IMG/VR virus record: IMGVR_UViG_3300008108_000072
Location: 1-59,419 of that record
DNA length: 59,419 bases
Reading direction: 5' to 3' (one strand)
From: a virus
The position numbers and the translations under genes are program-made. Shown here one piece after another: positions 40,711 to 56,209 of this stretch (the stretch's first letter is position 1; each line of letters begins with the position of its first letter). The notes below the pieces were generated by a model, which worked only from the letters and a program-made list of their open reading frames with translations, did no database searches and was not told where the DNA came from.

Positions 40711-40766
40711 ATTATAGCGGATCGGGGGTGGCTGTCGAGGGTCGGCAGCCAGTTCCCGAACTGGCA
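40711..40766 (-). promoter_or_regulatory. Dyad promoter for the 98-aa gene
   Basis: -10 TATAAT (40711-40716), 16-bp spacer, -35 TCGACA (40733-40738). Upstream is the dyad TGCCAG-N8-CTGGCT on the minus strand (40747-40766), the most symmetric of the set since GCCAGTTC/GAACTGGC is a perfect 8+2+8 palindrome. Confidence 0.75.
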
Positions 40767-40767
40767 C

Positions 40768-40941
40768 TCAGTGGCGGTCGGAGATGTTCCAGGTGCCGCT
40801 GTCGCTCCAGGAGGGGGCGGGGCGGAGACCCTGGCGGATCTCCTGGCGGCGCTGCTCCTCTGCCTGGAGCTGCTTCATGTAGGATGCCATCGCCATCTGG
40901 CAGGCGAGGTCTTGGCGGGCAGCTTCGTTGGTGATGAACAT
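40768..40941 (-). CDS. Small helical hypothetical, 57 aa
   Basis: ATG at 40941 and TGA at 40768. It begins MFITNEAARQDLACQMAMAS and has a charged helix (YMKQLQAEEQRRQEIRQGLR), ending WNISDRH. It was found by reading the GC-rich minus strand between two dyads: the stop touches the dyad of the next promoter, and its own dyad promoter lies at 40966-41022. This cassette placement is the main reason to believe it. Confidence 0.6.
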   Translation of the reverse strand: MFITNEAARQDLACQMAMASYMKQLQAEEQRRQEIRQGLRPAPSWSDSGTWNISDRH

Positions 40942-40965
40942 CGGGTGTCTGTGGTTGACTCTGGA

Positions 40966-41022
40966 ATTCTAGCGGGTCAGGGGAGCTGGCAGCTGCCAGG
41001 GAGGACACTGTTGTAAGTGGCA
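40966..41022 (-). promoter_or_regulatory. Dyad promoter for the 57-aa gene
   Basis: -10 TAGAAT (40966-40971) and dyad TGCCAC-N8-GTGTCC on the minus strand (41003-41022). No TTGACA-like -35 at the usual place. I predicted the dyad position from the -10 spacing of the other copies and then found it there. Confidence 0.6.
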
Positions 41023-41153
41023 CAGCGGCGCTCGGTGGCGGCGTTCACAGCACCCACGGTGTCAGCAGCGAACCCGATAGCAGCAGCACCCACAGCCCCG
41101 ATGGGAGCGTAGAGGGCAGCACCGAGGGAGAGCAGGGCGAGGGTCTTGAGCAT
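40977..41153 (-). CDS. Small exported or membrane protein, 58 aa
   Basis: ATG at 41153. The N-terminal 30 residues (MLKTLALLSLGAALYAPIGA and on) form a hydrophobic signal-like segment, and the rest contains two Cys (RRC, GSC) that could pair outside the cytoplasm. Its leader, AGTCAACCAACGACAGAGCC before the ATG, is identical to the leader of the GP88-like gene. The frame extends further upstream, but this leader match fixes the start. Confidence 0.6.
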   Translation of the reverse strand: MLKTLALLSLGAALYAPIGAVGAAAIGFAADTVGAVNAATERRCATYNSVLPGSCQLP

Positions 41154-41178
41154 GGCTCTGTCGTTGGTTGACTCTGGA

Positions 41179-41236
41179 ATTCTACCATGAGGTGGGGCAC
41201 CCACGGTGGTGCCCCTGTAACATTTCAGAACATCTC
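41179..41236 (-). promoter_or_regulatory. Degenerate dyad promoter for the 58-aa exported-type gene
   Basis: -10 TAGAAT (41179-41184) lies 26 bp before the ATG. The dyad place (41217-41236) holds only a weak match, and a GC hairpin GGGGCACC-N6-GGTGCCCC lies between. This is the poorest member of the set. Confidence 0.35.
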
Positions 41237-41500
41237 CCCGATGGGCATGATGTCGGGGGTGGGATCGTAACCCTCGAAAATCGCCTCTACGATCTCCTGG
41301 TGTGTACGCTGGGAGAGAATACCCTCCACAGCGATCTCCTCTGCCCATTCATAACAGCCACCAGTGAGAAAATCACAGGGGAGCATGTATGGGTGGGTTT
41401 GATCAAACAAATCCTCGATCTTGCCCAGTTCGGTGTTGATGTCGGTGGGAATCTCCCAGCCTTCGTCGATCTGAACGGTGTCGGTGAAAGCGTAGGTCAT
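41225..41500 (-). CDS. Acidic hypothetical, 91 aa
   Basis: The protein is strongly acidic (MTYAFTDTVQIDEGWEIPTD, then INTELGKIEDLFDQ) and has two Cys (LPCDFLTGGCYEW). It reads as one compact helical domain. A dyad promoter lies directly upstream at 41525-41582. I recognise no family. Acidic small phage proteins are often inhibitors or DNA mimics, but there is no direct sign of that here. Confidence 0.65.
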   Translation of the reverse strand: MTYAFTDTVQIDEGWEIPTDINTELGKIEDLFDQTHPYMLPCDFLTGGCYEWAEEIAVEGILSQRTHQEIVEAIFEGYDPTPDIMPIGEMF

Positions 41501-41524
41501 GGGGTGTCTGTGGTTGACTTGATC

Positions 41525-41582
41525 AGTCTACAGGGTGGGTGGGGGCATTGCTGCCCCCTGGTGGACAGTGCTCAGGCTGGCA
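41525..41582 (-). promoter_or_regulatory. Dyad promoter for the 91-aa gene
   Basis: -10 TAGACT (41525-41530), no TTGACA -35, dyad TGCCAG-N8-CTGTCC on the minus strand (41563-41582). The dyad overlaps the stop region of the GP88-like gene. A GGGGGCA-N4-TGCCCCC hairpin lies between -10 and dyad. Confidence 0.65.
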
Positions 41583-42300
41583 CAGCTGCCCGAACCTTCG
41601 CCTTCTGTACCTTACGGTTTGCCCTTGCTGCCTTGCCCCACTCGCTGCCCTTAGGCTGGGTGCCGTGTACCAGGAGAGCGAAGGGACCATCCTCAAAGCA
41701 GGAGCGATCCTTAACATCGACCTTGTAACCTGCTGCCACTGCTTGATCCTCAGTCATGAACACTTTAGCATAACGAGGGAACACACCTTCGTCGATCATG
41801 TGATCGAATTTGCCACCATAGGAGGCAGTGAAGTAGAAATTAGCAGGCAGCACCAAACCAACAAACAGTGGCAGATTCTTGCTGTAGCAGTAGAATTTGA
41901 TGCTAGGATTGGCGCTGGCAACTAACACCCAAGCGAGCAAATACTCAGGGGAGAAGAAATCACCAGACTCGTGAATTCTCACCTTCGTGATACGCTTAGT
42001 GAGATTCTTCTGGAGTTCGGTGTTGATGAGACCAGCACAGTTGCCCTCCTGGAGAGCTTCACGGATAGCCTTGAGGTTTGCTTGTCGTGCTTCATAAACT
42101 GGCGTGTACTGTACTTCAGAAGAAGCAGCAAAGCAGCGAAACTCAGTTTGAGGACCATCCCAAATCTTACGGTTTCCGTTAGAATCAATCCGAACCATTG
42201 AGAGGCACTTGTTAGCACCAGGGCAGGTTGTGCCAGCAGGCAGGTTGAAAATCAGGGTCTGCTTGTCGAGCTTGTCGTTGCCTTTGGAGAAGGTGAGCAT
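41572..42300 (-). CDS. GP88-like protein, 242 aa
   Basis: ATG at 42300 (MLTFSKGNDKLDKQTLIFNL). The sequence shows PAGTTCPGANKCLSMV (paired Cys), then FRCFAASSE, then VRIHESGDFFSPEYLLAWV, then SNPSIKFYCYSKNLP. This order, and in particular the HESGDFF motif, is what I associate with the 'gene product 88' family of mycobacteriophages and plasmids, whose function is unknown. The four Cys could bind metal. It has its own dyad promoter at 42326-42383 and the same leader as the exported-type gene at 41153. Confidence 0.6.
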   Translation of the reverse strand: MLTFSKGNDKLDKQTLIFNLPAGTTCPGANKCLSMVRIDSNGNRKIWDGPQTEFRCFAASSEVQYTPVYEARQANLKAIREALQEGNCAGLINTELQKNLTKRITKVRIHESGDFFSPEYLLAWVLVASANPSIKFYCYSKNLPLFVGLVLPANFYFTASYGGKFDHMIDEGVFPRYAKVFMTEDQAVAAGYKVDVKDRSCFEDGPFALLVHGTQPKGSEWGKAARANRKVQKAKVRAAVPA

Positions 42301-42325
42301 GGCTCTGTCGTTGGTTGACTTGATC

Positions 42326-42383
42326 AGTATAGGGGCAGGGTGGGGGCACTGTGGGGGTCGAGTGGACAGTGCCCCAGGTGGCA
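42326..42383 (-). promoter_or_regulatory. Dyad promoter for the GP88-like gene
   Basis: -10 TATACT (42326-42331). The -35 position reads CCACAG, not TTGACA. Dyad TGCCAC-N8-CTGTCC on the minus strand (42364-42383), with a 9-bp GC hairpin (GGGGCACTG/CAGTGCCCC) overlapping it. Confidence 0.65.
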
Positions 42384-42388
42384 CACCC

Positions 42389-42580
42389 TCAGAAGTCTAC
42401 AGCCCAGTCTGGGTCATTCTTTACAGCAACCCAGAAGAAATTCTTTCCATTGTGAGAACGAAGGAACACACGGTTCTCTTTAATTTGTTCCACAATACAC
42501 TCTGGGTTGCTGTTCATCAAGTTAGCGAATCTGTTCTTCGCTTTCTTGCTCTTAGGTGTGACAAAAGCGAGGTCAAACAT
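42389..42580 (-). CDS. Cyanophage conserved hypothetical, 63 aa
   Basis: ATG at 42580, one base inside the preceding stop (TGATG), so translation is coupled. It reads MFDLAFVTPKSKKAKNRFAN, then LMNSNPECIVEQ, and ends FFWVAVKNDPDWAVDF, a form I know from many T4-like cyanophages. It is basic at the N-terminus, with a beta-rich second half. Function unknown. Confidence 0.75.
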   Translation of the reverse strand: MFDLAFVTPKSKKAKNRFANLMNSNPECIVEQIKENRVFLRSHNGKNFFWVAVKNDPDWAVDF

Positions 42581-42759
42581 CACAGAACGTAGATACCGTG
42601 GGTGTTAAACAGTGTGGGTTGATTCTGTTGCCAACCCGTCATCATTTGCTGGAGTTGTTGTTGAGAATAGCGATTCAGAAAAGTATACTCAAACTCGGGT
42701 TTGTTATTCTGAATCCGAAGCATGTTCTGGATTGAGTTAATCAAACGTGAGCGAAGCAT
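42580..42759 (-). CDS. Small Gln/Asn-rich hypothetical, 59 aa
   Basis: ATG at 42759, TGA at 42580. Starts MLRSRLINSIQNMLRIQNNK and ends LFNTHGIYVL, with a Gln-rich middle (YSQQQLQQMMTGWQQNQ). It is the first gene of a two-gene unit with the 63-aa gene and follows the dyad promoter at 42782-42839 by 22 bp. No domain recognised. Confidence 0.65.
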   Translation of the reverse strand: MLRSRLINSIQNMLRIQNNKPEFEYTFLNRYSQQQLQQMMTGWQQNQPTLFNTHGIYVL

Positions 42760-42781
42760 TGTGTTTGTTTGAACTGTGTTC

Positions 42782-42839
42782 AGTATAGGGGGCAGGATGC
42801 CCCCCTGTGGGTGTTAGTGTGCCAGTTTAGATTCTGACA
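42782..42839 (-). promoter_or_regulatory. Dyad promoter for the 59/63-aa gene pair
   Basis: -10 TATACT (42782-42787). The -35 position reads CCACAG. Dyad TGTCAG-N8-CTGGCA on the minus strand (42820-42839) overlaps the 3' end of the upstream coding region. A GGGGGCA hairpin lies between. Confidence 0.65.
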
Positions 42840-43107
42840 CATCACATGCCCAATAGTAGGCACGTTCAGTGGTAGAACTCACAAACAGCAGCACACGTTG
42901 AGTATAACGAAGCAGGGTCTCTCGCCCGCCGTTGTTATACCAATCGCTGACACGGTTAGCAACCCAAACCGTGACGCCGACGATGAATCCAACCACCGTG
43001 GCGATTGTATAAAGAATCTGTTGGATGGTTTCGTTATTCTGAACCATCTCCATCAGTTCGTTATACTTTTCGACGATGGGGTTGTTGACAAGAATGGCGG
43101 TGTTCAT
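42814..43107 (-). CDS. Membrane protein with one transmembrane helix, 97 aa
   Basis: Residues 1-32 are polar and helical, 33-52 are hydrophobic (YTIATVVGFIVGVTVWVANR), and the rest is basic, then acidic, ending CDVSESKLAH. Single-pass topology is likely. It sits behind the dyad promoter at 43161-43217. No family recognised. Confidence 0.65.
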   Translation of the reverse strand: MNTAILVNNPIVEKYNELMEMVQNNETIQQILYTIATVVGFIVGVTVWVANRVSDWYNNGGRETLLRYTQRVLLFVSSTTERAYYWACDVSESKLAH

Positions 43108-43160
43108 TGTTGTTAAGAATTGGTTGGTGGGTTGAGTATACTTTCCTCAACCACACACCA

Positions 43161-43217
43161 AGAATAGCAACACCAGGGGCACCAGTCAAGGGGTAGTGGA
43201 CAGTTCACAAAGTGGCA
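43161..43217 (-). promoter_or_regulatory. Dyad promoter for the 97-aa membrane protein
   Basis: -10 TATTCT (43161-43166), 17-bp spacer, -35 TTGACT (43184-43189), dyad TGCCAC-N8-CTGTCC on the minus strand (43198-43217). Confidence 0.75.
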
Positions 43218-43241
43218 CACTAACACTTGACAAACACTAAA

Positions 43242-43269
43242 ATACCCTCTAGACTATACTAGAGGGTAT
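43242..43269 (-). terminator. Hairpin terminator candidate after the 42-aa gene
   Basis: Perfect 11-bp arms ATACCCTCTAG / CTAGAGGGTAT with a 6-nt loop (ACTATA). The minus strand continues TTTTAGTGTTTG, so termination is plausible; it could also act on the plus strand. Confidence 0.6.
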
Positions 43270-43275
43270 AATAAA

Positions 43276-43404
43276 CTACTCTTGAGTAGTATAATCTACT
43301 TCTGTTACTATACTATAATCATCATATTCTACTTCTTTATTCTTTATATCTTCTTCTTTCATTTCTTGTATAATATATTCTTGAAATGTTAATGTATTAG
43401 ACAT
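43276..43404 (-). CDS. Small acidic hypothetical, 42 aa
   Basis: ATG at 43404, TAG at 43276. It reads MSNTLTFQEYIIQEMKEEDI and is almost all charged or aromatic, ending VDYTTQE. It is followed by a hairpin terminator, and its leader holds the 19-bp inverted repeat at 43442-43490. The AT-rich composition contrasts with the GC-rich genes next to it. Function unknown. Confidence 0.55.
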   Translation of the reverse strand: MSNTLTFQEYIIQEMKEEDIKNKEVEYDDYSIVTEVDYTTQE

Positions 43405-43441
43405 AAAGATTATCCGTTAAAGTTTAATTTTTAATTATTTG

Positions 43442-43490
43442 AAAAAGTGAAAAATCTTAATTTTTGAGTTTTTAAGATTTTTCACTTTTT
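43442..43490 (-). repeat. Perfect 19-bp inverted repeat in an intergenic leader
   Basis: Arms 43442-43460 and 43472-43490 pair perfectly around an 11-nt loop. It lies after the stop at 43498 and before the start at 43404, so it is either a terminator or part of the next gene's leader. The loop motif AAACTCAAAAA also occurs in the leader at 44880-44983. Confidence 0.85.
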
Positions 43491-43497
43491 GAGATTT

Positions 43498-43674
43498 TCA
43501 GCTTTCCAACAATTCTGGATAATACTGATTTACCTCTTCCTTCAATTCTTCATCACTATACTTATCATAACCCTCTTGAAGATAGTCATAACACAGTGCC
43601 ATCACTGTCTTAAGATCCATGTCGTCCAACATCTGCTGAACCAATTGATCTTGGAGTTCCTGACGATCCATCAT
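43498..43674 (-). CDS. Cyanophage conserved helical protein, 58 aa
   Basis: Start chosen at the ATG (43674) that overlaps the preceding stop (ATGA). It reads MMDRQELQDQLVQQMLDDMD, then ALCYDYLQEGYDKYSDEELK, and ends VNQYYPELLES. I know this helical sequence from many marine cyanophages. Last of three coupled genes (43963 to 43498). Function unknown. Confidence 0.75.
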   Translation of the reverse strand: MMDRQELQDQLVQQMLDDMDLKTVMALCYDYLQEGYDKYSDEELKEEVNQYYPELLES

Positions 43675-43799
43675 TTCCGAAGGGGAGAGTTGAAGTAACG
43701 AGTGAAGCATAGCACCAGGATGATGCCAGTGGAGATGACACCGACCAGTCCGAGAACTGTCACAGCATCACCAGTAAAGTTGTAAGTGTCAACCATCAT
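43671..43799 (-). CDS. Small single-pass membrane protein, 42 aa
   Basis: ATG at 43799 overlapping the previous stop (ATGA), TGA at 43671. One hydrophobic helix (VTVLGLVGVISTGIILVLCF) with a short polar N-terminus and a basic end (TRYFNSPLRK). It is the size of small photosystem or cytochrome subunits, but the sequence does not match one I know. It is coupled to the genes on both sides. Confidence 0.65.
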   Translation of the reverse strand: MMVDTYNFTGDAVTVLGLVGVISTGIILVLCFTRYFNSPLRK

Positions 43800-43963
43800 A
43801 CATCATAACAAAGGTACATTGCTTTTTCATCTTCATACATGTCGATCTCAGATTCAGTCAGCCAAGGCAATGTCAGCATCATGTTGAAGAAATCAACTTG
43901 CCAACCATTCAGCATCATGATGTCGTCGTGACGAGCAATGATGTTGGTGTTGAAGTAATCCAT
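43796..43963 (-). CDS. Small acidic hypothetical, 55 aa
   Basis: ATG at 43963, TGA at 43796. It reads MDYFNTNIIARHDDIMMLNG, then FFNMMLTLPWLTE, and ends EKAMYLCYDV. It is the first gene of a three-gene coupled unit driven by the dyad promoter at 43987-44043. Function unknown. Confidence 0.65.
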   Translation of the reverse strand: MDYFNTNIIARHDDIMMLNGWQVDFFNMMLTLPWLTESEIDMYEDEKAMYLCYDV

Positions 43964-43986
43964 GTGGATTTCTCAGGTACAGATCA

Positions 43987-44043
43987 AGAATAACATGGGT
44001 GGGGGGTCATGTCAACCCCCCTGTGCCACTTCAGATGGCGGAC
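43987..44043 (-). promoter_or_regulatory. Dyad promoter (half-site) for the 55/42/58-aa unit
   Basis: -10 TATTCT (43987-43992), 17-bp spacer, -35 TTGACA (44010-44015). The proximal half-site GTGGCA is intact at 44024-44029. The distal half (44038-44043) is degenerate because it falls in coding sequence. Confidence 0.65.
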
Positions 44044-44210
44044 TTGAAGCCACGGCTCCACAGTGCCAGCCTCATGGTGCTAGCCTTCTCCACCTGCTGT
44101 TGGGTACGCCCAGAGCCCAGGGCTGCCTTCTGGAGCTGCTTACGGGTCTCACGACCAGCGGTGTTCACCAGCACGTTACGGGCAGACTGGAGGAGTTGCT
44201 GAGAAGTCAT
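44031..44210 (-). CDS. Basic helical hypothetical, 59 aa
   Basis: ATG at 44210 (MTSQQLLQSARNVLVNTAGR). It is rich in Arg, Lys and Gln (ETRKQLQKAALGSGRTQQQV), ending SRGFKSAI. It could bind nucleic acid. It has its own dyad promoter at 44257-44314. Its coding G+C is higher than its AT-rich neighbours. Confidence 0.6.
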   Translation of the reverse strand: MTSQQLLQSARNVLVNTAGRETRKQLQKAALGSGRTQQQVEKASTMRLALWSRGFKSAI

Positions 44211-44256
44211 TTTGAACCTCGGTAGTGTTTGGTCGGGGTGTTCCCCCGATGAACAT

Positions 44257-44314
44257 AGTATGGCACCCACCAGAGCCCCCTACAAGCCCCTCTGTGCCAC
44301 CTCTAGAACTGTCA
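44257..44314 (-). promoter_or_regulatory. Dyad promoter for the 59-aa basic gene
   Basis: -10 CATACT (44257-44262), 17-bp spacer, -35 TTGTAG (44280-44285), dyad TGACAG-N8-GTGGCA on the minus strand (44295-44314). Confidence 0.7.
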
Positions 44315-44372
44315 CAGTGTCACACCACCGAGGCATCTCAAACGTGCTAAGAATGGCTTCTGGTGTAGGTAT

Positions 44373-44396
44373 AAAAAAAGAGGGGCATTGCCCCTC
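44373..44396 (-). terminator. Intrinsic terminator after the 54-aa gene
   Basis: Minus-strand stem GAGGGGC, loop AAT, stem GCCCCTC, followed by seven T. It lies 11 bp past the stop at 44407. A-rich sequence on the other side makes it potentially bidirectional. Confidence 0.9.
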
Positions 44397-44406
44397 AAAA
44401 TATTAC

Positions 44407-44571
44407 CTATTCCCAATCGCCATAGTCATCGTAATCCTTGAATTTGGTTTGACGCTTATTCCTTGTTGAATAACGTTTCTGATTTTGGACTTCATACCCA
44501 AAGTCTTCAAATTCTTCTTCAAGGGACAGATCTTTAAAAGATTCTGTGTACTTACGAGTGCTTTTTGCCAT
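44407..44571 (-). CDS. Charged cyanophage hypothetical, 54 aa
   Basis: ATG at 44571, TAG at 44407. It reads MAKSTRKYTESFKDLSLEEE, then NQKRYSTRNKRQTK, and ends DYDDYGDWE: a basic centre with acidic ends. It has a late-type CATAAATA motif upstream and a strong terminator behind, so it is probably expressed late, unlike its neighbours. Confidence 0.65.
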   Translation of the reverse strand: MAKSTRKYTESFKDLSLEEEFEDFGYEVQNQKRYSTRNKRQTKFKDYDDYGDWE

Positions 44572-44611
44572 TTTTAACTCAATTTACTCCTGTTTTGTGG
44601 GTATTTTGTGA

Positions 44612-44619
44612 TATTTATG
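44612..44619 (-). promoter_or_regulatory. Late-promoter motif CATAAATA
   Basis: Minus-strand CATAAATA 41 bp upstream of the ATG at 44571, directly after the stop of the KTSC-type gene. Confidence 0.5.
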
Positions 44620-44620
44620 T

Positions 44621-44848
44621 TCAAACAGCAACAATTTGAAGAGTTTGCTCTTCTTTCAGTGCTCGATTGAACAAACGACCAACACTTTGGTTGTTTTCAA
44701 TAGCATTTTGAACAGAATCTACAAAATTACCAGTGGTATCACGGTAATTATAGCTATTACCACTATTAAATGTAATAGTGACAATGTTATCATCACTCAT
44801 GCTAACAGCACTAATAGCAGTAGAATCAATGTTTTGAATGGTTTTCAT
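44621..44848 (-). CDS. KTSC-domain-like protein, 75 aa
   Basis: The layout IDSTAISAVSMSDDNIVTIT, then FNSGNSYNYRD, then VQNAIENNQSVGRLFNRALK follows the KTSC domain: S-x-I strand, hydrophobic strand with F-x-x-G, aromatic Y-x-Y strand, helix, then S-x-G-x-x-F/L-N. The function of KTSC domains is unknown. Its transcript from the promoter at 44990 would carry a long leader (about 135 nt) with an imperfect hairpin, which suggests leader control. Confidence 0.7.
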   Translation of the reverse strand: MKTIQNIDSTAISAVSMSDDNIVTITFNSGNSYNYRDTTGNFVDSVQNAIENNQSVGRLFNRALKEEQTLQIVAV

Positions 44849-44879
44849 GATTTATCGATTAATGGTTAAATGTTAACTT

Positions 44880-44983
44880 TGAAGTTTTTGGAAATCTCAA
44901 AAATCTTAAATTCTGAAGTTTTTAACTTTTTGAGTTTTTTGAGTTTTTGGGATTTCTCGATTTCTGAGATTTCCGAACTTCAT
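44880..44983 (-). repeat. Imperfect inverted repeat in the KTSC-gene leader
   Basis: The left part (GAAGTTTTTGGAAATCTCAA from 44880) is nearly complementary to the right part ending near 44983 (reverse complement GAAGTTCGGAAATCTCAGAA). Between them are repeats of TTTTTGAGTTTTT. It lies in the 5' leader between promoter 44990 and the ATG at 44848. Confidence 0.6.
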
Positions 44984-44989
44984 GAATAC

Positions 44990-45046
44990 AGTATAGGGCA
45001 TCCTGCCAGGGTTGTCAAGGGGGCTGTGCCAGTCCCTGAACTGTCC
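44990..45046 (-). promoter_or_regulatory. Dyad promoter for the KTSC-like gene
   Basis: -10 TATACT (44990-44995), 17-bp spacer, -35 TTGACA (45013-45018), dyad GGACAG-N8-CTGGCA on the minus strand (45027-45046). It is one of the best consensus copies. Confidence 0.85.
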
Positions 45047-45087
45047 TTCGAGGGTCTCCGAGGGTCTTAGAGTTAGACTGGGAGATT

Positions 45088-45122
45088 TGTCAAGCCCCTT
45101 TGTGCCACTTTGAGAACTGGCA
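45088..45122 (-). promoter_or_regulatory. Second, tandem dyad with -35 but poor -10
   Basis: -35 TTGACA (45088-45093) and dyad TGCCAG-N8-GTGGCA on the minus strand (45103-45122), 76 bp upstream of the first copy. No good -10 at 17 bp, so it may be a decayed duplicate or an extra operator. Confidence 0.55.
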
Positions 45123-45346: not shown

Positions 45347-45844
45347 CTACCTGCGGAAAGTAGCTGCCTTAATAGAGTTTTCTTGTGGTGTTGCCCATTC
45401 AAGATTACTTACATGATTATTTGTTGGTTCATGATCTATATGATTAACATAGATCATTTCACTTATAATCTCTTTGACTGGTGATGGTAACTCTTTCCAA
45501 TATGTTTTCAATCTATGAGGTGGGTACTTTTCTATTGGTTTATATGTTTCTATTACTAACCTATGAACATATACTCTACGTTGATATGTTGTACAATTTA
45601 AATTTTTTCTTTTCTTTTGGTAGTGTTCATCATTTGGTAGTAATCCATATGGTATTGCTAGGCGAACACATAAGTAATCTTTCTTTCTATCCCATTTTGT
45701 TTGCTTCATTTCTACCATTGGTCCTGTTGTAACATATCCAGTATTCTTTCCTTTGTTTCTGATTCTGGTAGTGAATACACGCCCATCGGTGGAAACATAG
45801 TAACCAGGAATAACTTTACCACAAAATACTGCTGCTTTGATCAT
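45347..45844 (-). CDS. HNH homing-type endonuclease, 165 aa
   Basis: The start is the ATG at 45844 that overlaps the preceding stop (ATGA); a second ATG four codons upstream is possible. Residues 10-30 (KVIPGYYVSTDGRVFTTRIR) are a NUMOD-type opening. VHRLVIETYKPI (93-104) and VNHIDHEPTNNHVSNLEWAT (133-152) followed by PQENS form an HNH_3 motif with His135 and Asp137. Free-standing HNH enzymes move between phage genomes. It is AT-rich and directly beside the DnaA-box-like palindrome. No intron or split gene was found around it. Confidence 0.85.
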   Translation of the reverse strand: MIKAAVFCGKVIPGYYVSTDGRVFTTRIRNKGKNTGYVTTGPMVEMKQTKWDRKKDYLCVRLAIPYGLLPNDEHYQKKRKNLNCTTYQRRVYVHRLVIETYKPIEKYPPHRLKTYWKELPSPVKEIISEMIYVNHIDHEPTNNHVSNLEWATPQENSIKAATFRR

Positions 45845-46029
45845 GCTACCATCCATTCATGAACAGGATAATCCATTTGATCAAGTAAACAAGCAGCAAC
45901 TTCATTCATTGCTACATTACGATCTGATTTGTAGACATTGTGCTGTAGATCCATTGCCCGAACGTATAGAGCATCAGCAAGGGCTGTACGCTGCTCAGGA
46001 GTCAGTGTAATGGTAACGGTGGTGTTCAT
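45841..46029 (-). CDS. Cyanophage hypothetical, 62 aa
   Basis: It reads MNTTVTITLTPEQRTALADA, then LYVRAMDLQHNVYKS, and ends DQMDYPVHEWMVA. A short strand is followed by helices. It has a dyad promoter at 46052-46108, and its stop overlaps the start of the HNH gene, so the two are co-expressed. Function unknown. Confidence 0.68.
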   Translation of the reverse strand: MNTTVTITLTPEQRTALADALYVRAMDLQHNVYKSDRNVAMNEVAACLLDQMDYPVHEWMVA

Positions 46030-46051
46030 GTGGGTTGGTTGAACTGTGCTT

Positions 46052-46108
46052 ATTGTAATGGGTGATAGGTGGGGTTGAGACTAGAAAGGGACAGTTGCTA
46101 AGCTGTCC
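46052..46108 (-). promoter_or_regulatory. Dyad promoter for the 62-aa gene and HNH endonuclease
   Basis: -10 TACAAT (46052-46057), no TTGACA -35, perfect dyad GGACAG-N8-CTGTCC (46089-46108). The dyad's outer bases extend the symmetry to AAGGGACAG / CTGTCCCTT. Confidence 0.7.
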
Positions 46109-46119
46109 CTTGATTAAAA

Positions 46120-46846: not shown

Positions 46847-46871
46847 GTTCCTCCGTTGAGTGTATGTAGTG

Positions 46872-47354: not shown

Positions 47355-47638
47355 GGTGTTACCTCTTGTGTAGGGGGCTCTGGAGGGGCTGGTGGTACTT
47401 GTGGCGTGGGTGGCAGCTGTGGCATGATTGGAGCCTGCTGCTGGGGCATCTGGAGGGGGCTGGAGAGCTTTTCTTCTAGCTTCTCCTCCAACTGTGTGAG
47501 TTTCTGCTCAATAGCAGGTTGTGGTTCTTCTGGTTTATATTCTGGCTGATTCTGTGCCAGTTTATAACCAGCAGCACCAGCAGCGAAAATACTAGCCAGT
47601 GCTGCTACTGTGGAGACAGTTGATTGAAACTTACTCAT
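47351..47638 (-). CDS. Membrane-anchored proline-rich protein, 95 aa
   Basis: Start chosen at the ATG at 47638. One transmembrane helix (STVSTVAALASIFAAGAAGY), then a short coiled coil (EQKLTQLEEKLEEKL), then a long Pro/Gln-rich tail (PQQQAPIMPQLPPTPQVPPA). The tail could span the periplasm or bind partners, as TonB-like Pro tails do. The overlapping genes on both sides suggest a joint role. Confidence 0.68.
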   Translation of the reverse strand: MSKFQSTVSTVAALASIFAAGAAGYKLAQNQPEYKPEEPQPAIEQKLTQLEEKLEEKLSSPLQMPQQQAPIMPQLPPTPQVPPAPPEPPTQEVTP

Positions 47639-47819
47639 TTTTGTTGATGATGGCTTTGAGTTCAAAGATGGCGTTACTTACAGTCGCCTCAAGATAACCA
47701 TAACAATAGGGATACCCATGCTCATTTTGAATGGCAGGGTTCTTAGTCACCTTCAGGGCATCTTGGAGACCTTCCAGAATGCTTTCCAGATGCCAGGTGG
47801 TGACTTTGGTGCTGCTCAT
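47631..47819 (-). CDS. Cyanophage hypothetical, 62 aa
   Basis: It reads MSSTKVTTWHLESILEGLQD and has two helices separated by HGYPYCYGYLEATV. First gene of the unit that ends with the 73-aa membrane protein. A -10 box TAGACT and a perfect dyad lie upstream, inside the next gene's coding sequence. Confidence 0.66.
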   Translation of the reverse strand: MSSTKVTTWHLESILEGLQDALKVTKNPAIQNEHGYPYCYGYLEATVSNAIFELKAIINKNE

Positions 47820-47840
47820 GTTGAGTTGGGTGAACTGAGA

Positions 47841-47996
47841 TCAGTCTAGCTCTCTCAGGTCATCCAGCAGGTCTTCTGGGACAGTCTCGTAACTGTCCTC
47901 CAGATAGATGTGTTCAGCACTTTGTAGAATACTCTTCCTCATGCTGTAATCATCATACATGTATTCAGTTGTGTCAAAGTCAGAAAAGTAAGTCAT
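47841..47996 (-). CDS. Small acidic hypothetical, 51 aa
   Basis: ATG at 47996 inside the preceding stop (ATGA), TGA at 47841. Highly acidic (MTYFSDFDTTEYMYDDYSMR, then EDSYETVPEDLLDDLREL). It contains the regulatory dyad 47879-47898, so coding and control sequence overlap. It may be a DNA-mimic-like or inhibitor peptide; that is speculation. Confidence 0.6.
   Translation of the reverse strand: MTYFSDFDTTEYMYDDYSMRKSILQSAEHIYLEDSYETVPEDLLDDLRELD
47843..47898 (-). promoter_or_regulatory. Dyad promoter inside a coding region, for the 62-aa gene unit
   Basis: -10 TAGACT (47843-47848) and a perfect dyad GGACAG-N8-CTGTCC (47879-47898) at the standard 36-bp distance. No TTGACA -35. The whole element lies in the coding sequence of the 51-aa gene. 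Confidence 0.6.
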
Positions 47997-48635: not shown

Positions 48636-48642
48636 TATACAA

Positions 48643-50867: not shown

Positions 50868-51051
50868 CGTAGCCAGCATAGCGGAGCATGGCTCGTCGGG
50901 CATCATAGGCAGTGAACTCATTAGGGTAGACTCCAAGGCAGTGGCGAGTCTCACGATCAATGATCTCCCACTTGCTCGTACCAATCCTAGCACGAACGAT
51001 CATGGGGTTGTCAATGCCCAGGGGATAAGGCTTTTTGGTGGTCATGCTCAT
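50860..51051 (-). CDS. Cyanophage hypothetical, 63 aa
   Basis: ATG at 51051, coupled by ATGA to the gene before. It reads MSMTTKKPYPLGIDNPMIVR, then ARIGTSKWEIIDRETRHC and NEFTAYDARRAMLRYAGYDA. It looks like a short beta sheet followed by a helix. Function unknown. Confidence 0.66.
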   Translation of the reverse strand: MSMTTKKPYPLGIDNPMIVRARIGTSKWEIIDRETRHCLGVYPNEFTAYDARRAMLRYAGYDA

Positions 51052-51224
51052 TGGATTTTACCCTCGCTAATGTCGTTGATAATGAATCGAAGTTTGTCAA
51101 TAGTCTCTTGATCAACATAATTGTCGATCATCGTGTCTGTGTTGTAGCAGTCTACAATAAGCTTAGCAGCATCGTAGACAGCAGCAACAGCTTCGTCACG
51201 GGTTTCAAATTGAAAGTTGCTCAT
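51048..51224 (-). CDS. Cyanophage hypothetical, 58 aa
   Basis: ATG at 51224 chosen because it lies 26 bp after the -10 of the dyad promoter. It reads MSNFQFETRDEAVAAVYDAA, then helices. First gene of the unit that continues to the halogenase (six coupled genes to 50250). Confidence 0.64.
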   Translation of the reverse strand: MSNFQFETRDEAVAAVYDAAKLIVDCYNTDTMIDNYVDQETIDKLRFIINDISEGKIQ

Positions 51225-51249
51225 GAGGTGTTCTCTTGAGTACCCCCAT

Positions 51250-51306
51250 ATTATGGCATCCCTTCGTGGGCATGTCAAGGGGTGTGTGCCAGTTTCAAGA
51301 CAGTAA
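51250..51306 (-). promoter_or_regulatory. Dyad promoter for the halogenase-containing operon
   Basis: -10 CATAAT (51250-51255), 17-bp spacer, -35 TTGACA (51273-51278), dyad TTACTG-N8-CTGGCA on the minus strand (51287-51306). The dyad overlaps the stop of the 591-aa gene. The operon runs 51224 to 48643. Confidence 0.78.
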
Positions 51307-53070: not shown

Positions 53071-53086
53071 GGGTCATAGTTTTTAA

Positions 53087-53248
53087 CTATTTAGATTTAC
53101 GCTTTGGCTTCTTCTGTTTTTCTCTATGTTTTTTCAGTGCCTCAATAGCTTGCTCATCTGTCTTGTGATCGCTGAGCTGCTGTCCATTGTATATTAAAAC
53201 AAAACGGTCCCCCCAGGGGACCGTAGCATATCCATCTTTAGTTATCAT
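53087..53248 (-). CDS. Small basic hypothetical, 53 aa, with an internal terminator-like hairpin
   Basis: ATG at 53248, TAG at 53087. It reads MITKDGYATVPWGDRFVLIY, then NGQQLSDHKTDEQAIEAL, and a basic tail KKPKRKSK. It overlaps the previous gene by 11 bp. A terminator-like hairpin (53204-53224) lies in codons 9-15, so transcription may be attenuated here. Confidence 0.62.
   Translation of the reverse strand: MITKDGYATVPWGDRFVLIYNGQQLSDHKTDEQAIEALKKHREKQKKPKRKSK
53204..53224 (-). terminator. Terminator-like hairpin inside the 53-aa ORF
   Basis: Minus strand ACGGTCCCC, loop TGG, GGGGACCGT (perfect 9-bp arms), followed by TTTTGTTTTAA. It lies 14 bp past the stop at 53238, so it can end that transcript although it falls inside the next ORF. 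Confidence 0.7.
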
Positions 53249-53405
53249 ATCCTAGTCTCTCTCTACAGTATTTAAACCGTTCCCATTCCTCGTCAGTGAA
53301 GTTATCACTAGCATATGGGATGCCCACTACATAAGCACAGAATTTGTTGATCTGTTCAGATTGATTGCTGGAAGCAATAATAGCACTGGCGAGGAGTTCA
53401 ATCAT
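53238..53405 (-). CDS. Small hypothetical, 55 aa
   Basis: ATG at 53405, TAA at 53238. It reads MIELLASAIIASSNQSEQIN, then FCAYVVGIPYASDNFTDEEW and ERFKYCRERLGYDN. It overlaps the next ORF start by 11 bp and follows the SPFH C-terminal gene after 2 bp. No domain recognised. Confidence 0.62.
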   Translation of the reverse strand: MIELLASAIIASSNQSEQINKFCAYVVGIPYASDNFTDEEWERFKYCRERLGYDN

Positions 53406-53407
53406 AA

Positions 53408-53860
53408 TCACTTACCGTCGAAACCACCTGGCAGGATGTCCATCTTAGCACCGTTCACGATAATCATCTTTTGGATGCTACCATTCTTCATTGCTTCACG
53501 GAGAATCTCATTACGCTGATACTCAAGATAGGACGGAGTGATAGTCGAAGCAAGAGATTTGTTCTCGTTCGATTTCAGTTCAGCAGTACGGTTCTTCACA
53601 ATCTGTTCCTTCTCAGCAGATTGAGCAGTCACCACACGGTTCACAGCAGCAACCAGATCCTCGGGAAGATCTGCTTTCACAACAACCACAGATTCAATAT
53701 CAATCTTGCCGCCCAGGTTGTTCTTATCCAGAGCAAGAATCAGATTCTGTTTGATGGTATCCTGAATCTTATCCAGACTGCTGTTCACATCCAGAGCAGG
53801 ATATTCGTCAACCGATTGGTTCACAGCAGAAGTAATCAGACGCTTGATGAAACTTGCCAT
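53408..53860 (-). CDS. SPFH/prohibitin-like C-terminal half, 150 aa
   Basis: It begins MASFIKRLITSAVNQSVDEY, which matches the middle of SPFH domains (RxxIxxAVxxVxxxY), and continues VKADLPEDLVAAVNRVVTAQ (typical P-ExL-x-A-I...Q) into a charged coiled coil (AEKEQIVKNRTAELKSNENK). The first third of the SPFH domain is missing because it is in the preceding ORF. It starts one base inside that stop (TGATG). Confidence 0.7.
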   Translation of the reverse strand: MASFIKRLITSAVNQSVDEYPALDVNSSLDKIQDTIKQNLILALDKNNLGGKIDIESVVVVKADLPEDLVAAVNRVVTAQSAEKEQIVKNRTAELKSNENKSLASTITPSYLEYQRNEILREAMKNGSIQKMIIVNGAKMDILPGGFDGK

Positions 53861-54147
53861 CAGTTCAATCTGACCATTCTCACTTCCATATCTTTCATAA
53901 TGGTGTTGTCTTTGGTCTTCGGAGTCAGGTTATCCGATTGAACAGTGATCTTACGAGTGTTGAAGACTTTGATAGAACCGAAACCATCGTATTTAATACC
54001 AGGAGTCAGCACTTCATTCTTCACCTGACCATCAAATCCCACGTAGAGACCATTCTCACCAGTGTTGATGGTGGTGAATTGACCAGCAGTGAGCACGAGA
54101 GCGAGCAGAACACCGCCAGCACCAAGAACAATTTTGCCAGTAGACAT
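53860..54147 (-). CDS. SPFH/prohibitin-like N-terminal half, 95 aa
   Basis: A membrane anchor (KIVLGAGGVLLALVLTAGQF, residues 5-24) is followed by the SPFH opening (INTGENGLYVGFDGQVKNEV, LTPGIKYDG, VFNTRKITVQSDNLTPKTKD). It breaks off at MKDMEVRMVRLN and stop. Relative to normal SPFH proteins a stretch of about 25-40 residues between the two halves is absent. Cyanophages often encode an intact prohibitin-like protein. The upstream small membrane gene and the coupled downstream half suggest one membrane complex. Confidence 0.7.
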   Translation of the reverse strand: MSTGKIVLGAGGVLLALVLTAGQFTTINTGENGLYVGFDGQVKNEVLTPGIKYDGFGSIKVFNTRKITVQSDNLTPKTKDNTIMKDMEVRMVRLN

Positions 54148-54174
54148 AGTTAGTTAGGGAGTAAAGAACAAGAA

Positions 54175-54336
54175 TTAGTCAGAAGTAACACCAGCGTAAA
54201 TCAACGCTACTGCTACGATGAGAAGAAGAACGAGGGGCAGCATCTTCATAAAGAACAATACTGGAATGCCCCTCGACAATAGAATCAGCAGGATAAGAAA
54301 TACACCTGCTCCAGTACCAAGAATACGAGCAATCAT
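54175..54336 (-). CDS. Small membrane protein with two helices, 53 aa
   Basis: ATG at 54336, TAA at 54175. Two hydrophobic helices (GAGVFLILLILL and MLPLVLLLIVAVALIYAGV) separated by SRGIPVLFFMK. It precedes the split SPFH genes and could act with them at the membrane. Function unknown. Confidence 0.62.
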   Translation of the reverse strand: MIARILGTGAGVFLILLILLSRGIPVLFFMKMLPLVLLLIVAVALIYAGVTSD

Positions 54337-54342
54337 TTTACA

Positions 54343-54756
54343 TCAGGGAGTAATCCAATCATAACCATCAGGTTGTTTAACAGTCTCATACCCATCATAT
54401 TCATCAATACGATAAGGACCAGAGACTTCTTTGATAGCAAGTTTAGCACAAGAACCGTCTGCTTTCTCTCCCAGTTCTTCTACAACTTGAACAAGAATGG
54501 GGTCGTGACGGGAAACATTATGATCATACCAAGTTTGTTTTGAATATCTTTCGTTGAAGTCCTTACGTTCATCTTGGGTCATCAATCGCCATTCTTTTTG
54601 GACTACACGTTCTTCAGGTGGAACCAACCAAACATTGAATCCCCACGAAGAATTTTCAATCCAAACTTGTTGACCTTTGATTTCCCAGTAACGCTCACAC
54701 GCTTCACGGGACAGACCGAACCCACCGTAGCAGGCATTATATACTACTTTAATCAC
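54343..54756 (-). CDS. Phage-conserved hypothetical, 137 aa
   Basis: It begins MIKVVYNACYGGFGLSREAC, an opening I know from many marine phages, and has NSSWGFNVWLVPPEERVVQK and DHNVSRHDPILVQVVEELG. It is a compact alpha/beta protein with two conserved Cys near the start. The start overlaps the upstream gene by ATGA. Function unknown. Confidence 0.75.
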   Translation of the reverse strand: MIKVVYNACYGGFGLSREACERYWEIKGQQVWIENSSWGFNVWLVPPEERVVQKEWRLMTQDERKDFNERYSKQTWYDHNVSRHDPILVQVVEELGEKADGSCAKLAIKEVSGPYRIDEYDGYETVKQPDGYDWITP

Positions 54757-55022
54757 AGTGCTGCTACCTCTTCCATAATGATTTCTACATCACGCTCATC
54801 ACGATGACCAAGAACATCCTCAGTGATGGGAGTATCATAGCACAGTTCAAAGTCATCTTCATTTCCTTTGATGACTGCTACCTCATACAGATCATGGGCA
54901 TAACCATATGATCCAGGGAATCGTACCACACTCACACCATAACCATTGGGGAAAAAGTGTTTTGCTTGAACCCCGTCAGTAGTATAGTGTGGATGGGGTT
55001 GAAAGTCAAGATCAGTGAATTT
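54753..55022 (-). CDS. Cyanophage hypothetical, 89 aa
   Basis: ATG at 55022 (MKFTDLDFQPHPHYTTDGVQ), then FPNGYGVSVVRFPGSYGYAH and an acidic tail RDVEIIMEEVAAL. It overlaps the upstream gene by 11 bp. A sigma70-type promoter sequence lies within its first codons. Confidence 0.68.
   Translation of the reverse strand, partial: KFTDLDFQPHPHYTTDGVQAKHFFPNGYGVSVVRFPGSYGYAHDLYEVAVIKGNEDDFELCYDTPITEDVLGHRDERDVEIIMEEVAAL
54981..55009 (-). promoter_or_regulatory. Sigma70-type promoter inside a gene
   Basis: -10 TATACT (54981-54986), 17-bp spacer, -35 TTGACT (55004-55009), within codons 5-14 of the 89-aa gene. It would drive the genes from 54756 onwards, including the split SPFH pair. Confidence 0.5.
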
Positions 55023-55296
55023 CATCGGATTTAAAGCGATCGGACCAGGCAGTGTTGAAGCGTTCACGAAGATTCTCAATCATAGTGTAGCGTTGAACAA
55101 TCTCACTGTCCATAGGAAGATCATAAATTCCATAAGGACAAGCAAAATTCATCGTTTCAACTGCTTGAAGTAGTACATCACAAATCATTTGATGCTCAGC
55201 ATATGTCAATGTAATGTTGAGATCATTCCGATCAATGTGAAGATCATCGTTTGTATCTTCAACGATGAGTTGATTGATTACAGGGAGCGAAATCAT
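55012..55296 (-). CDS. Cyanophage hypothetical, 94 aa
   Basis: It reads MISLPVINQLIVEDTNDDLH, then LTYAEHQMICDVLLQAVETM and YTMIENLRERFNTAWSDRFK. A short strand is followed by helices. It follows the 52-aa gene after 2 bp. Function unknown. Confidence 0.68.
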   Translation of the reverse strand: MISLPVINQLIVEDTNDDLHIDRNDLNITLTYAEHQMICDVLLQAVETMNFACPYGIYDLPMDSEIVQRYTMIENLRERFNTAWSDRFKSDEIH

Positions 55297-55298
55297 AA

Positions 55299-55457
55299 TC
55301 AGAAAGCAATCTCGTCGAGAGTGGGCATAGGACCAGCAGATACAGTTTCAGTACACTCTGCTGTCACAGTATCGCCAGCAATAGCATCAAGAATGCTCAG
55401 AATTTGTTCGCCATTGGAACCCTTACGGAGCATGGAGATCAGAAGTTGCTTGCTCAT
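55299..55457 (-). CDS. Small hypothetical, 52 aa
   Basis: ATG at 55457 (MSKQLLISMLRKGSNGEQIL, then SILDAIAGDTVTAECTETVS, ending TLDEIAF). The longer upstream frame would overlap the preceding gene. Similar short proteins ending 'PTLDEIxF' occur in cyanophages. Function unknown. Confidence 0.62.
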   Translation of the reverse strand: MSKQLLISMLRKGSNGEQILSILDAIAGDTVTAECTETVSAGPMPTLDEIAF

Positions 55458-55482
55458 GGTAATAAAATAATAAGGTTTACAA

Positions 55483-55644
55483 TTAGTCTTCGATAGGGAA
55501 CAGTTGCCAAGTGTCAGGGCGAATGCCCATCTCTTCACAACGAACCTCGTAGGCAATACGCTGGAGCAGACGGAGATCCATGTCTAGCACCGCTTTACGG
55601 ATGGTGTGACGGATCTGGGCGTCTTGGGTGGTGTCAGTAACCAT
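55483..55644 (-). CDS. Small hypothetical, 53 aa
   Basis: ATG at 55644, TAA at 55483. It reads MVTDTTQDAQIRHTIRKAVL, then DMDLRLLQRIAYEVRCEE and ends RPDTWQLFPIED. It follows the dyad promoter at 55668-55725 by 24 bp and begins the unit that runs to 53238. Confidence 0.64.
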   Translation of the reverse strand: MVTDTTQDAQIRHTIRKAVLDMDLRLLQRIAYEVRCEEMGIRPDTWQLFPIED

Positions 55645-55667
55645 GTCGGTTGCTTGAGTACCTACTC

Positions 55668-55725
55668 ATTATAGGGGTGAAACCACCCCGATGTGGGGTG
55701 GTGTGTGCCAGTTGTCAGACTGCCA
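55668..55725 (-). promoter_or_regulatory. Dyad promoter with a hairpin in place of the -35
   Basis: -10 TATAAT (55668-55673). The -35 position reads CCACAT. Perfect 8-bp hairpin ACCACCCC-N5-GGGGTGGT at 55682-55702. Dyad TGGCAG-N8-CTGGCA on the minus strand (55706-55725). Confidence 0.68.
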
Positions 55726-56128
55726 GTGCTGCCGAAGGAATCTCGGCAATGGTGGGCATAGTGTTCTCTTCGAACTGGTGACGATCATAGCAGATCCACT
55801 CATCATCGAGCGTGAAGATGTAAGCATACTCTTCGCCATCTGCCAAGTAGTCATACTTGTTGGCATCGAGGCGAGGGGGGCAATCCTCACCACGCTGAGA
55901 GTAGTAGTTAGGACCATACTCAGATGGCTTGCCATTGTGATCCATGGGCAGCTCAGTCCAGCAACAGCTCATGTCACCACCATCAATCAGCTCAGCCGCC
56001 TTCTCACGGCTGTTGTAGTGGGTCTTGAGGATACGACCCAGCCACTCGGGATAGCCATCCCAGTGGTGATACACCGAAAGGATCGACTCGTCGGGAAGCA
56101 TGATGCCGATTCGTGAGCGGGTTGCCAT
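55715..56128 (-). CDS. Phage-conserved hypothetical, 137 aa
   Basis: It opens MATRSRIGIMLPDESILSVY, then HHWDGYPEWLGRILKTHYNS and REKAAELIDGGDMS. The 'ATRSRIGI...S-Y-HWDGYP..G..L..HY' pattern is shared by many phages. The C-terminus (TLDDEWICYDRHQF) is also typical. Function unknown; the His, Trp and Asp cluster hints at a binding or catalytic site. It has its own dyad promoter. Confidence 0.8.
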   Translation of the reverse strand: MATRSRIGIMLPDESILSVYHHWDGYPEWLGRILKTHYNSREKAAELIDGGDMSCCWTELPMDHNGKPSEYGPNYYSQRGEDCPPRLDANKYDYLADGEEYAYIFTLDDEWICYDRHQFEENTMPTIAEIPSAALAV

Positions 56129-56152
56129 GTGGTCTCCGTTGTTGACTCACTT

Positions 56153-56209
56153 AATATAGGGCAAAACAAAGGGGGCGTCAAGCCCCCTGTGCCACTTGCT
56201 CAACTGTCA
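56153..56209 (-). promoter_or_regulatory. Dyad promoter for the 137-aa gene
   Basis: -10 TATATT (56153-56158), 17-bp spacer, -35 TTGACG (56176-56181), dyad TGACAG-N8-GTGGCA on the minus strand (56190-56209), touching the stop of the upstream gene. Confidence 0.82.

What the first reader, a model, noticed from the sequence alone, without database searches (positions are those of the whole stretch)
40711..56209. About fifteen copies of one dyad, TGNCAG-N8-CTGNCA, at a fixed distance from sigma70-like -10 boxes
Reading the minus strand between 40.7 and 56.2 kb I find a 20-bp dyad with half-sites TGNCAG / CTGNCA (variants GGACAG, TGCCAC, GTGGCA) and always 8 bp between them. Positions: 40747-40766, 41003-41022, 41563-41582, 42364-42383, 42820-42839, 43198-43217, 44295-44314, 45027-45046, 45103-45122, 46089-46108, 47879-47898, 51287-51306, 55706-55725, 56190-56209, plus a half copy at 44024-44043. 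In nearly every case a -10 box begins 36-38 bp before it. Constant spacer and phase point to one dimeric DNA-binding protein acting on a set of small-gene promoters. I know of no described cyanophage regulon with this site.
Basis: partly seen in the sequence, partly recalled or inferred. Interest (0 to 1): 0.88.

Follow-up and report, generated by a model that had tools for sequence, protein, structure and literature searches.

The report
Host-activator-like sites at cyanophage early promoters
A set of early-gene promoters in a virus of photosynthetic bacteria carries the same paired DNA signal, at the same distance from the start site, that the bacteria use to switch on one of their own small regulatory RNAs, so the virus probably starts its infection programme by borrowing a bacterial activator protein.

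Summary
All 15 have a -10 box 30-32 nt downstream. 51287 has a decayed left half; 44024 is a half-site.

The element is not private to this phage. A 24-bp palindrome, TG[T/G]G[A/C]CA[G/C]TT-N4-AA[C/G]TG[G/T]C[A/C]CA, sits 31-32 nt before TATAAT in nearly all Kyanoviridae examined (Syn9, P-SSM2, P-TIM40, S-PM2 and others). It also occurs in the unrelated Microcystis siphovirus Mic1, where all 48 sites lie in the gp50-gp73 region, which published RNA-seq links to early genes.

In cyanobacterial genomes the strict palindrome's main recurrent home is the promoter of the Cyano-1/Yfr2 sRNA, with the same spacing. Published work says a GntR regulator (PMM1637, common to all cyanobacteria) binds yfr2 promoters and mediates Yfr2 induction. 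Host genomes tested hold that GntR; the phages tested hold none.

Most likely mechanism: the dyad is a strong site for this host activator, centred near -53.5, letting phage early promoters fire on entry, often without a -35 box. Binding itself is untested. Doron et al. 2016 probably reported the early element; I could not read it.

The parts
56153..56209 (-). Promoter module: dyad 56190-56209 (TGACAGTTGAGCAAGTGGCA), TTGACG as -35 in the loop of GGGGGC-ttgac-GCCCCC followed by T-rich DNA, -10 TATATT 56153-56158; gene 55715-56128 (137 aa)
   Evidence: (29.4 bits)
55668..55725 (-). Promoter module: dyad 55706-55725, hairpin CCACCCC/GGGGTGG in the spacer, -10 TATAAT 55668-55673; gene 55483-55644 (53 aa)
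   Evidence: (16.9 bits)
51250..51306 (-). Promoter module: dyad 51287-51306 with decayed left half, -35 TTGACA, -10 CATAAT 51250-51255; gene 51048-51224 (58 aa)
   Evidence: (11.1 bits)
47843..47898 (-). Promoter module: dyad 47879-47898 (GGACAGTTACGAGACTGTCC), -10 TAGACT 47843-47848, no -35; gene 47631-47819 (62 aa)
   Evidence: (20.6 bits)
46052..46108 (-). Promoter module: dyad 46089-46108, -10 TACAAT 46052-46057, no -35; gene 45841-46029 (62 aa)
   Evidence: (21.0 bits)
45066..45122 (-). Upstream member of a tandem pair: dyad 45103-45122, -35 TTGACA, weak -10 TCTAAG 45066-45071
   Evidence: (29.2 bits)
44990..45046 (-). Promoter module: dyad 45027-45046, -35 TTGACA, -10 TATACT 44990-44995; long A-rich leader (141 nt); gene 44621-44848 (75 aa)
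   Evidence: (22.8 bits)
44257..44314 (-). Promoter module: dyad 44295-44314, -10 CATACT 44257-44262; gene 44031-44210 (59 aa)
   Evidence: (30.1 bits)
43987..44043 (-). Half-site only (right half 44024-44029) with -35 TTGACA and -10 TATTCT 43987-43992; gene 43796-43963 (55 aa)
   Evidence: (2.3 bits)
43161..43217 (-). Promoter module: dyad 43198-43217, -35 TTGACT, -10 TATTCT 43161-43166; gene 42814-43107 (97 aa)
   Evidence: (25.8 bits)
42782..42839 (-). Promoter module: dyad 42820-42839, hairpin GGGGGCA-tcc-TGCCCCC, -10 TATACT 42782-42787; gene 42580-42759 (59 aa)
   Evidence: (21.0 bits)
42326..42383 (-). Promoter module: dyad 42364-42383, -10 TATACT 42326-42331; gene 41572-42300 (242 aa, Pfam Gp88)
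   Evidence: (20.3 bits)
41525..41582 (-). Promoter module: dyad 41563-41582, hairpin GGGGGCA-gcaa-TGCCCCC, -10 TAGACT 41525-41530; gene 41225-41500 (91 aa)
   Evidence: (19.2 bits)
40966..41022 (-). Promoter module: dyad 41003-41022, -10 TAGAAT 40966-40971; gene 40768-40941 (57 aa)
   Evidence: (21.6 bits)
40711..40766 (-). Promoter module: dyad 40747-40766 (nearly perfect 8-bp arms), -10 TATAAT 40711-40716; gene 40368-40664 (98 aa)
   Evidence: (15.0 bits)

Best explanation
The dyads are binding sites for a dimeric transcription activator of the HOST: most likely the cyanobacterial GntR-family regulator (PMM1637 in Prochlorococcus MED4; from memory, its relatives are called PlmA/Sll1961) that acts at the promoter of the host sRNA Yfr2 (Rfam Cyano-1). 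The phage has put a strong, symmetric version of this site, centred near -53.5 (31-32 nt before the -10 box), in front of a dozen or more small early genes. On DNA entry the resident activator recruits host sigma-70 RNA polymerase to promoters that in many phages have no usable -35 box; in some promoters the freed spacer even holds an intrinsic-type terminator hairpin for the upstream gene. SHOWN here: the sites, their fixed spacing, independence of the half-sites, conservation in Kyanoviridae and Mic1, the same site and spacing at host Cyano-1/yfr2 promoters, a GntR gene in the hosts tested and none in the phages tested. FROM LITERATURE: GntR PMM1637 binds yfr2 promoters and mediates Yfr2 induction; Mic1 genes of this region are early by RNA-seq. 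INFERRED: that GntR binds the phage dyads, that it activates rather than represses there, and that the window's genes are early.
For: 1) A matrix trained on other phages recovers 13 of 15 sites as the 13 best in the window. 2) Over 11 cyanophage records, strong -10 boxes lie 30/31/32 nt after exact dyads 10/41/22 times against 1.5 expected per offset; in 186 strict IMG/VR dyads, 31/32 nt occurs 76/33 times against about 2. 3) Mic1, a siphovirus of Microcystis: 48 of 48 matrix hits lie in 56.8-72.1 kb (gp50-gp73), and RNA-seq puts gp49 and gp69-gp73 in the immediate cluster and gp52, gp59, gp63 among the next early genes (PMC11237433). There the -10 lies mainly 32 or 41 nt after the dyad, about one helical turn apart, as expected of a factor touching polymerase. 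4) Hosts: a strict palindrome scan of 292 cyanobacterial genomes gives 26 sites against 3 in the control; those in 9 loci stand at Cyano-1 RNA, with a weak -10 about 32 nt after the dyad in most. Of 51 oriented Cyano-1 promoters, 23 have a dyad of at least 5 bits and 22 of these lie at -71 to -65 from the conserved GTGAGGAG. 5) PMC6778093: PMM1637, 'common to all cyanobacteria', binds yfr2 promoters with the CGRE1 motif; CGRE1 is nowhere else in MED4; Yfr2 induction is mediated by PMM1637. This agrees with no enrichment of the dyad in 61 picocyanobacterial genomes (75 against 174 control). 6) GntR over the family cut-off: one each in 4 of 4 picocyanobacteria, 0 in 10 cyanophage records and the window. 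In a 29-genome sample every genome with Cyano-1 has the full-length GntR. 7) -35 matches are near chance level in P-SSM2, P-TIM40 and B23, as for activator-dependent promoters.
Against: No binding or expression data for this phage. In picocyanobacteria the yfr2 site is diverged (right half often GAGCGSC), so the phage sites are closer to the non-marine yfr2 sites than to those of the likely hosts. Roughly half of the Cyano-1 promoters scanned show no recognisable dyad. The letters of CGRE1 are not in any paper I could read, so equating it with this dyad is inference. Several window promoters have good -35 boxes and might not need help. The co-occurrence of GntR and Cyano-1 is confounded by ancestry. 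A number of host dyads lie next to other genes (e.g. L513, L516, L517, L521-L525, L530, L531).
Confidence: 0.7

Rival explanations
1. The dyad is bound by a phage-encoded activator, injected with the DNA or made at once from leaky promoters, conserved in cyanophages.
For: The palindrome is not enriched in picocyanobacterial genomes, so it looks like a phage regulon when only those hosts are examined; many core cyanophage proteins have no known function.
Against: No obvious transcription regulator stood out by eye among 34 ORFs shared by most dyad phages and absent from T4 (they were not scanned against domain libraries). The same site occurs in the unrelated siphovirus Mic1 and at host Cyano-1 promoters with the same spacing. 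No GntR gene in the phages.
Confidence: 0.15
2. The dyad is an operator at which a regulator (host or phage) represses early genes or shuts them off later.
For: Palindromic operators are commonly repressor sites; Mic1 has arrays of several dyads 56-58 bp apart.
Against: The fixed 31-32 nt distance upstream of the -10, the poor -35 boxes and published induction of Yfr2 through PMM1637 fit an activator; a repressor needs no fixed distance.
Confidence: 0.08
3. The dyads are RNA hairpins, terminators of the upstream genes.
For: They often overlap or follow the upstream stop codon, and real terminator-like hairpins do occur next to them: 18 of 114 spacers hold a G-C-rich stem against 1.7 in shuffles.
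Against: Arms pair no more often than expected if left and right halves vary independently (e.g. position 3: 44 against 50; position 6: 46 against 59). The hairpins lie in the spacer, not in the dyad.
Confidence: 0.03
4. The repeats are a recombination cassette or by-product of promoter duplication, with no regulator.
For: Neighbouring modules share similarity beyond the dyad (e.g. 41505-41584 and 42306-42385); composite promoter-stem-loop cassettes are reported to mediate shuffling in T4-like phages (cited in PMC4503421).
Against: Half-sites and spacers differ between copies while dyad symmetry and distance stay constant across diverged phage genera and Mic1.
Confidence: 0.04

Closest known systems
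Early-gene regulatory element of Syn9 and P-TIM40 (Doron et al. 2016, ISME J 10:1437; abstract from memory, paper not held)
   Same: Same phages and the same kind of region: Syn9 promoters of gp55, gp68, gp73 and gp75, and P-TIM40 44-55 kb, carry the dyad before small genes. That abstract, as I recall it, says a novel element controls early genes and is conserved in T4-like cyanophages.
   Different: I could not compare the letters or the position of their motif; the host-factor link found here may or may not be in print.
yfr2 (Cyano-1, RF01701) promoters with the CGRE1 motif and GntR regulator PMM1637 (Lambrecht et al. 2018 DNA Res 25:489, not held; restated in PMC6778093)
   Same: Dyad of the same sequence, ending about 32 nt before the -10.
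   Different: Those drive a host sRNA; phage copies drive coding genes, are more symmetric, and occur up to about 48 times per genome. In picocyanobacterial yfr2 promoters the right half has diverged.
Late promoters of phage P2 activated by Ogr/Delta (from memory)
   Same: Dyad centred near -55, no good -35, sigma-70 -10, activator contacts RNA polymerase.
   Different: P2 site is TGT-N12-ACA, late genes, phage-encoded zinc-finger activator; here early genes and, by inference, a host GntR protein.
PeSL promoter-stem-loop cassettes of T4-like phages (Comeau et al. 2014; cited in PMC4503421)
   Same: Compact terminator hairpin joined to an early promoter between small genes.
   Different: Here the hairpin, when present, sits inside the promoter between the dyad and the -10; the defining feature is the dyad.

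Membership tests
T4-like cyanophage early-gene regulatory element (Doron et al. 2016) | Present at early-region promoters of Syn9 and P-TIM40 | tested here: met
   (early status of these Syn9 and P-TIM40 genes is from position and memory, not tested)
T4-like cyanophage early-gene regulatory element (Doron et al. 2016) | Motif letters and position as published | not testable with these tools
   paper not held
T4-like cyanophage early-gene regulatory element (Doron et al. 2016) | Conserved among T4-like cyanophages | tested here: met
   nearly all Kyanoviridae tested; T4 none by matrix
CGRE1 / GntR PMM1637-regulated promoters | Same dyad at yfr2 promoters at the same distance | tested here: met
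   (22 of 23 scoring dyads at -71..-65)
CGRE1 / GntR PMM1637-regulated promoters | Bound and regulated by the GntR protein | not testable with these tools
   needs binding assays; GntR present in hosts, absent from phages
Sigma-70-type promoters | -10 TATAAT-like hexamer and -35 at 16-18 nt | tested here: inconclusive
   -10 present in nearly all; -35 only in some
T4 middle (MotA) promoters | MotA box centred at -30 with phage MotA/AsiA | tested here: not met
   dyad centred near -53.5; cyanomyoviruses lack motA and asiA (PMC2984593)
P2 Ogr/Delta late promoters | TGT-N12-ACA dyad near -55 | tested here: not met
   consensus differs
Intrinsic terminators | Arms of the dyad pair as RNA with T-run | tested here: not met
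   independent half-sites

The most novel reading that the evidence does not exclude
Cyanophages of at least two unrelated families, with hosts from Prochlorococcus to Microcystis, start infection by copying the activator site of one host sRNA promoter (yfr2) tens of times, thereby enslaving a cyanobacterial GntR regulator and replacing the -35 box. This would explain how phages lacking Alt, MotA and AsiA capture host polymerase at once.
Probability: 0.6. Interest if true: 0.87.

Novelty: new variant of a known kind. Interest (0 to 1): 0.74.

Why it matters
How T4-like cyanophages, which lack T4's Alt, Mod, MotA and AsiA proteins, switch host polymerase to their early genes is stated as unclear in the literature (PMC2984593). 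The shared dyad names a concrete, testable host factor, explains why one early programme can work in different hosts, gives a matrix that finds early promoters in metagenomic cyanophages, and links light and nitrogen control of the host sRNA Yfr2 to the first minutes of infection.

Tried and rejected
Hairpin/terminator reading of the dyad: half-sites vary independently. Private regulon of this phage: rejected. Phage-encoded regulator: no obvious transcription-factor candidate among shared proteins by inspection, no GntR. First IMG/VR scan with half-site plus -35 mainly caught a different element, a terminator hairpin AGGGGTAACTGG-CACAAT-CCAGTTGACACCCCT-T6 followed by a -10; set aside. Correlating dyad presence with proteins failed because almost all Kyanoviridae have dyads. 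Rfam and tRNA scans of the window: nothing. Literature: Doron 2016, Lambrecht 2018 and the PeSL papers are not held. The 'control' (reversed pattern) exceeds the forward count in hosts; I do not read this as avoidance, only as no enrichment. Structure prediction was not used: it would not test binding specificity here.
Full report
WHAT WAS CLAIMED.

CHECK. All sites are there. One-mismatch pattern search: 11 matches, 1.54 expected. No hit of 10 bits or more lies in 1-40 kb, which holds homologues of baseplate and other large structural genes (closest relative by gene order is S-PM2). Site 51287 has a decayed left half; 44024 is a half-site. In all 15 the -10 hexamer lies 30, 31 or 32 nt after the dyad and, in most, the ATG is 22-25 nt after the -10. 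Most first genes are 53-137 aa; their PHROG matches, where present, are of unknown function; the exception is Gp88.

ANATOMY. Reading the minus strand: upstream stop codon, dyad, usually CA, 31-32 nt, -10, short A-rich leader, ATG. Taking the -10 as -12 to -7, the dyad spans about -63 to -44, centre -53.5. A -35 TTGACA-like box is present in about half of the window promoters and absent from the rest. Across 114 promoters of 11 phage records the extended consensus is TG[T/G]G[A/C]CA[G/C]TT-N4-AA[C/G]TG[G/T]C[A/C]CA, and -35 matches in P-SSM2, P-TIM40 and B23 are near the chance level. In 18 of 114 the spacer holds a stem with at least 4 G-C pairs (1.7 expected after shuffling), sometimes with a T-run: a terminator placed inside the promoter. 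In the window the clearest is GGGGGC-ttgac-GCCCCC in the 56190 module, with the -35 in its loop.

PROTEIN SITE, NOT RNA. Left and right halves pair no more often than in random re-assortments, so the symmetry is that of a DNA-bound dimer.

DISTRIBUTION. Counts of KGNCAST-N6-ASTGNCM, forward against reversed control: about 85 against 1 over 17 records, with T4 and Ma-LMM01 at zero. Over 126 exact dyads, strong -10 boxes peak at 30/31/32 nt (10/41/22; 1.5 expected). In Syn9 the dyads precede small genes gp55, gp68, gp73 and gp75; in P-TIM40, P-SSM2 and S-SRM01 many precede annotated small genes by about 70-90 nt. The strict 24-bp palindrome gives at least 120 stretches of IMG/VR, its reversed control none, with the same 31/32-nt peak.

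A SECOND PHAGE FAMILY. Some IMG/VR arrays led to Microcystis siphovirus Mic1. The matrix trained on myoviruses finds 48 sites in its 92.6 kb, all in 56.8-72.1 kb, the region gp50-gp73. RNA-seq (PMC11237433) puts gp49 and gp69-gp73 in the immediate-early cluster and lists gp52, gp59 and gp63 among the 17 next early genes. The full gene table was not readable, so I do not claim that every gene there is early; gp49 has no dyad hit. The -10 lies mainly 32 or 41 nt after the dyad, about one helical turn apart.

THE HOST COUNTERPART. Picocyanobacterial genomes show no enrichment. A phylum-wide scan for the strict palindrome found 26 sites in 21 of 292 genomes (3 control). Dyads in 9 loci stand at Cyano-1 RNA (RF01701), and most of these share the layout dyad, about 32 nt, weak -10, and a TGTGTGAGGAG 5' end. 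I equate Cyano-1 with the Yfr2 family by its GTGAGGAG and GAAACA motifs (from memory). Taking Cyano-1 genes themselves, 51 oriented promoters were extracted; 23 score 5 bits or more for the dyad and 22 of the 23 lie at -71 to -65 from GTGAGGAG. In picocyanobacteria the right half has drifted to about GAGCGSC (L551 of WH7803, L555, L562).

WHO BINDS. PMC6778093 reports that GntR regulator PMM1637, common to all cyanobacteria, binds yfr2 promoters with the CGRE1 motif, that CGRE1 occurs nowhere else in MED4, and that Yfr2 induction is mediated by PMM1637. The picocyanobacteria tested each have one GntR gene over the family cut-off; ten cyanophage records and the window have none. The WH7803 protein is a 329-aa GntR with full-length relatives, 47-54% identical, in every genome of a 29-genome sample that has Cyano-1; ancestry confounds this.

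MODEL. Phage early promoters carry a strong copy of the site used by this host activator, so they work as soon as DNA enters. Shown: sites, spacing, conservation, host counterpart, absence of a phage GntR. Inferred: GntR binding to phage DNA, activation, early timing in this phage.

WORKS LIKE / IS A. It works like an activator-dependent promoter with a site just upstream of -35 (compare P2 Ogr, from memory), but is not an Ogr or MotA promoter. It very probably belongs to the cyanophage early element of Doron et al. 2016, which I could not read. Whether the GntR link to phages is already published is unknown to me.

Noticed in passing
L468 12-420, L431 1640-1960, Mic1 (L510+L511) 65.9-72.1 kb: Tandem arrays of the dyad with 56-58-bp units in Mic1-like phages; many units hold only a degenerate -10. 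They may titrate or concentrate the activator at the most strongly expressed early genes.
   Followed up: partly
loci such as L017, L025, L048, L117: A different widespread cyanophage element: CGTCGTCGC...AGGGGTAACTGG-CACAAT-CCAGTTGACACCCCT-TTTTTT followed 17 nt after TTGACA by a TATAAT box, i.e. a terminator hairpin whose 3' arm carries the -35 of the next promoter.
   Followed up: no
window 43428-43514 and 44877-44972: A-rich direct repeats (AAAACTCAAAAAGTTAAAAA-like on the minus strand) form the long leader downstream of the 45027 promoter and recur at 43.4 kb; function unknown.
   Followed up: no
L521, L522, L523, L524: Four cyanobacterial genomes share a near-identical dyad TGTACCAGTTTTGCAAGTGGCACA that is not at Cyano-1; a possible second host target of the same regulator.
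   Followed up: no
window 45347-45856: HNH endonuclease gene (Pfam HNH_3) in the early small-gene region, just upstream of the tandem dyad promoters 45103/45027.
   Followed up: no
window 56036-56071: 36 bp identical to S-8S55 (OQ504983 37656-37691) within an otherwise dissimilar region.
   Followed up: no
S-CREM1 80007, 84941; Syn9 gp63: Dyads with 9 instead of 8 bp between half-sites, so counts with fixed N8 are lower bounds.
   Followed up: partly
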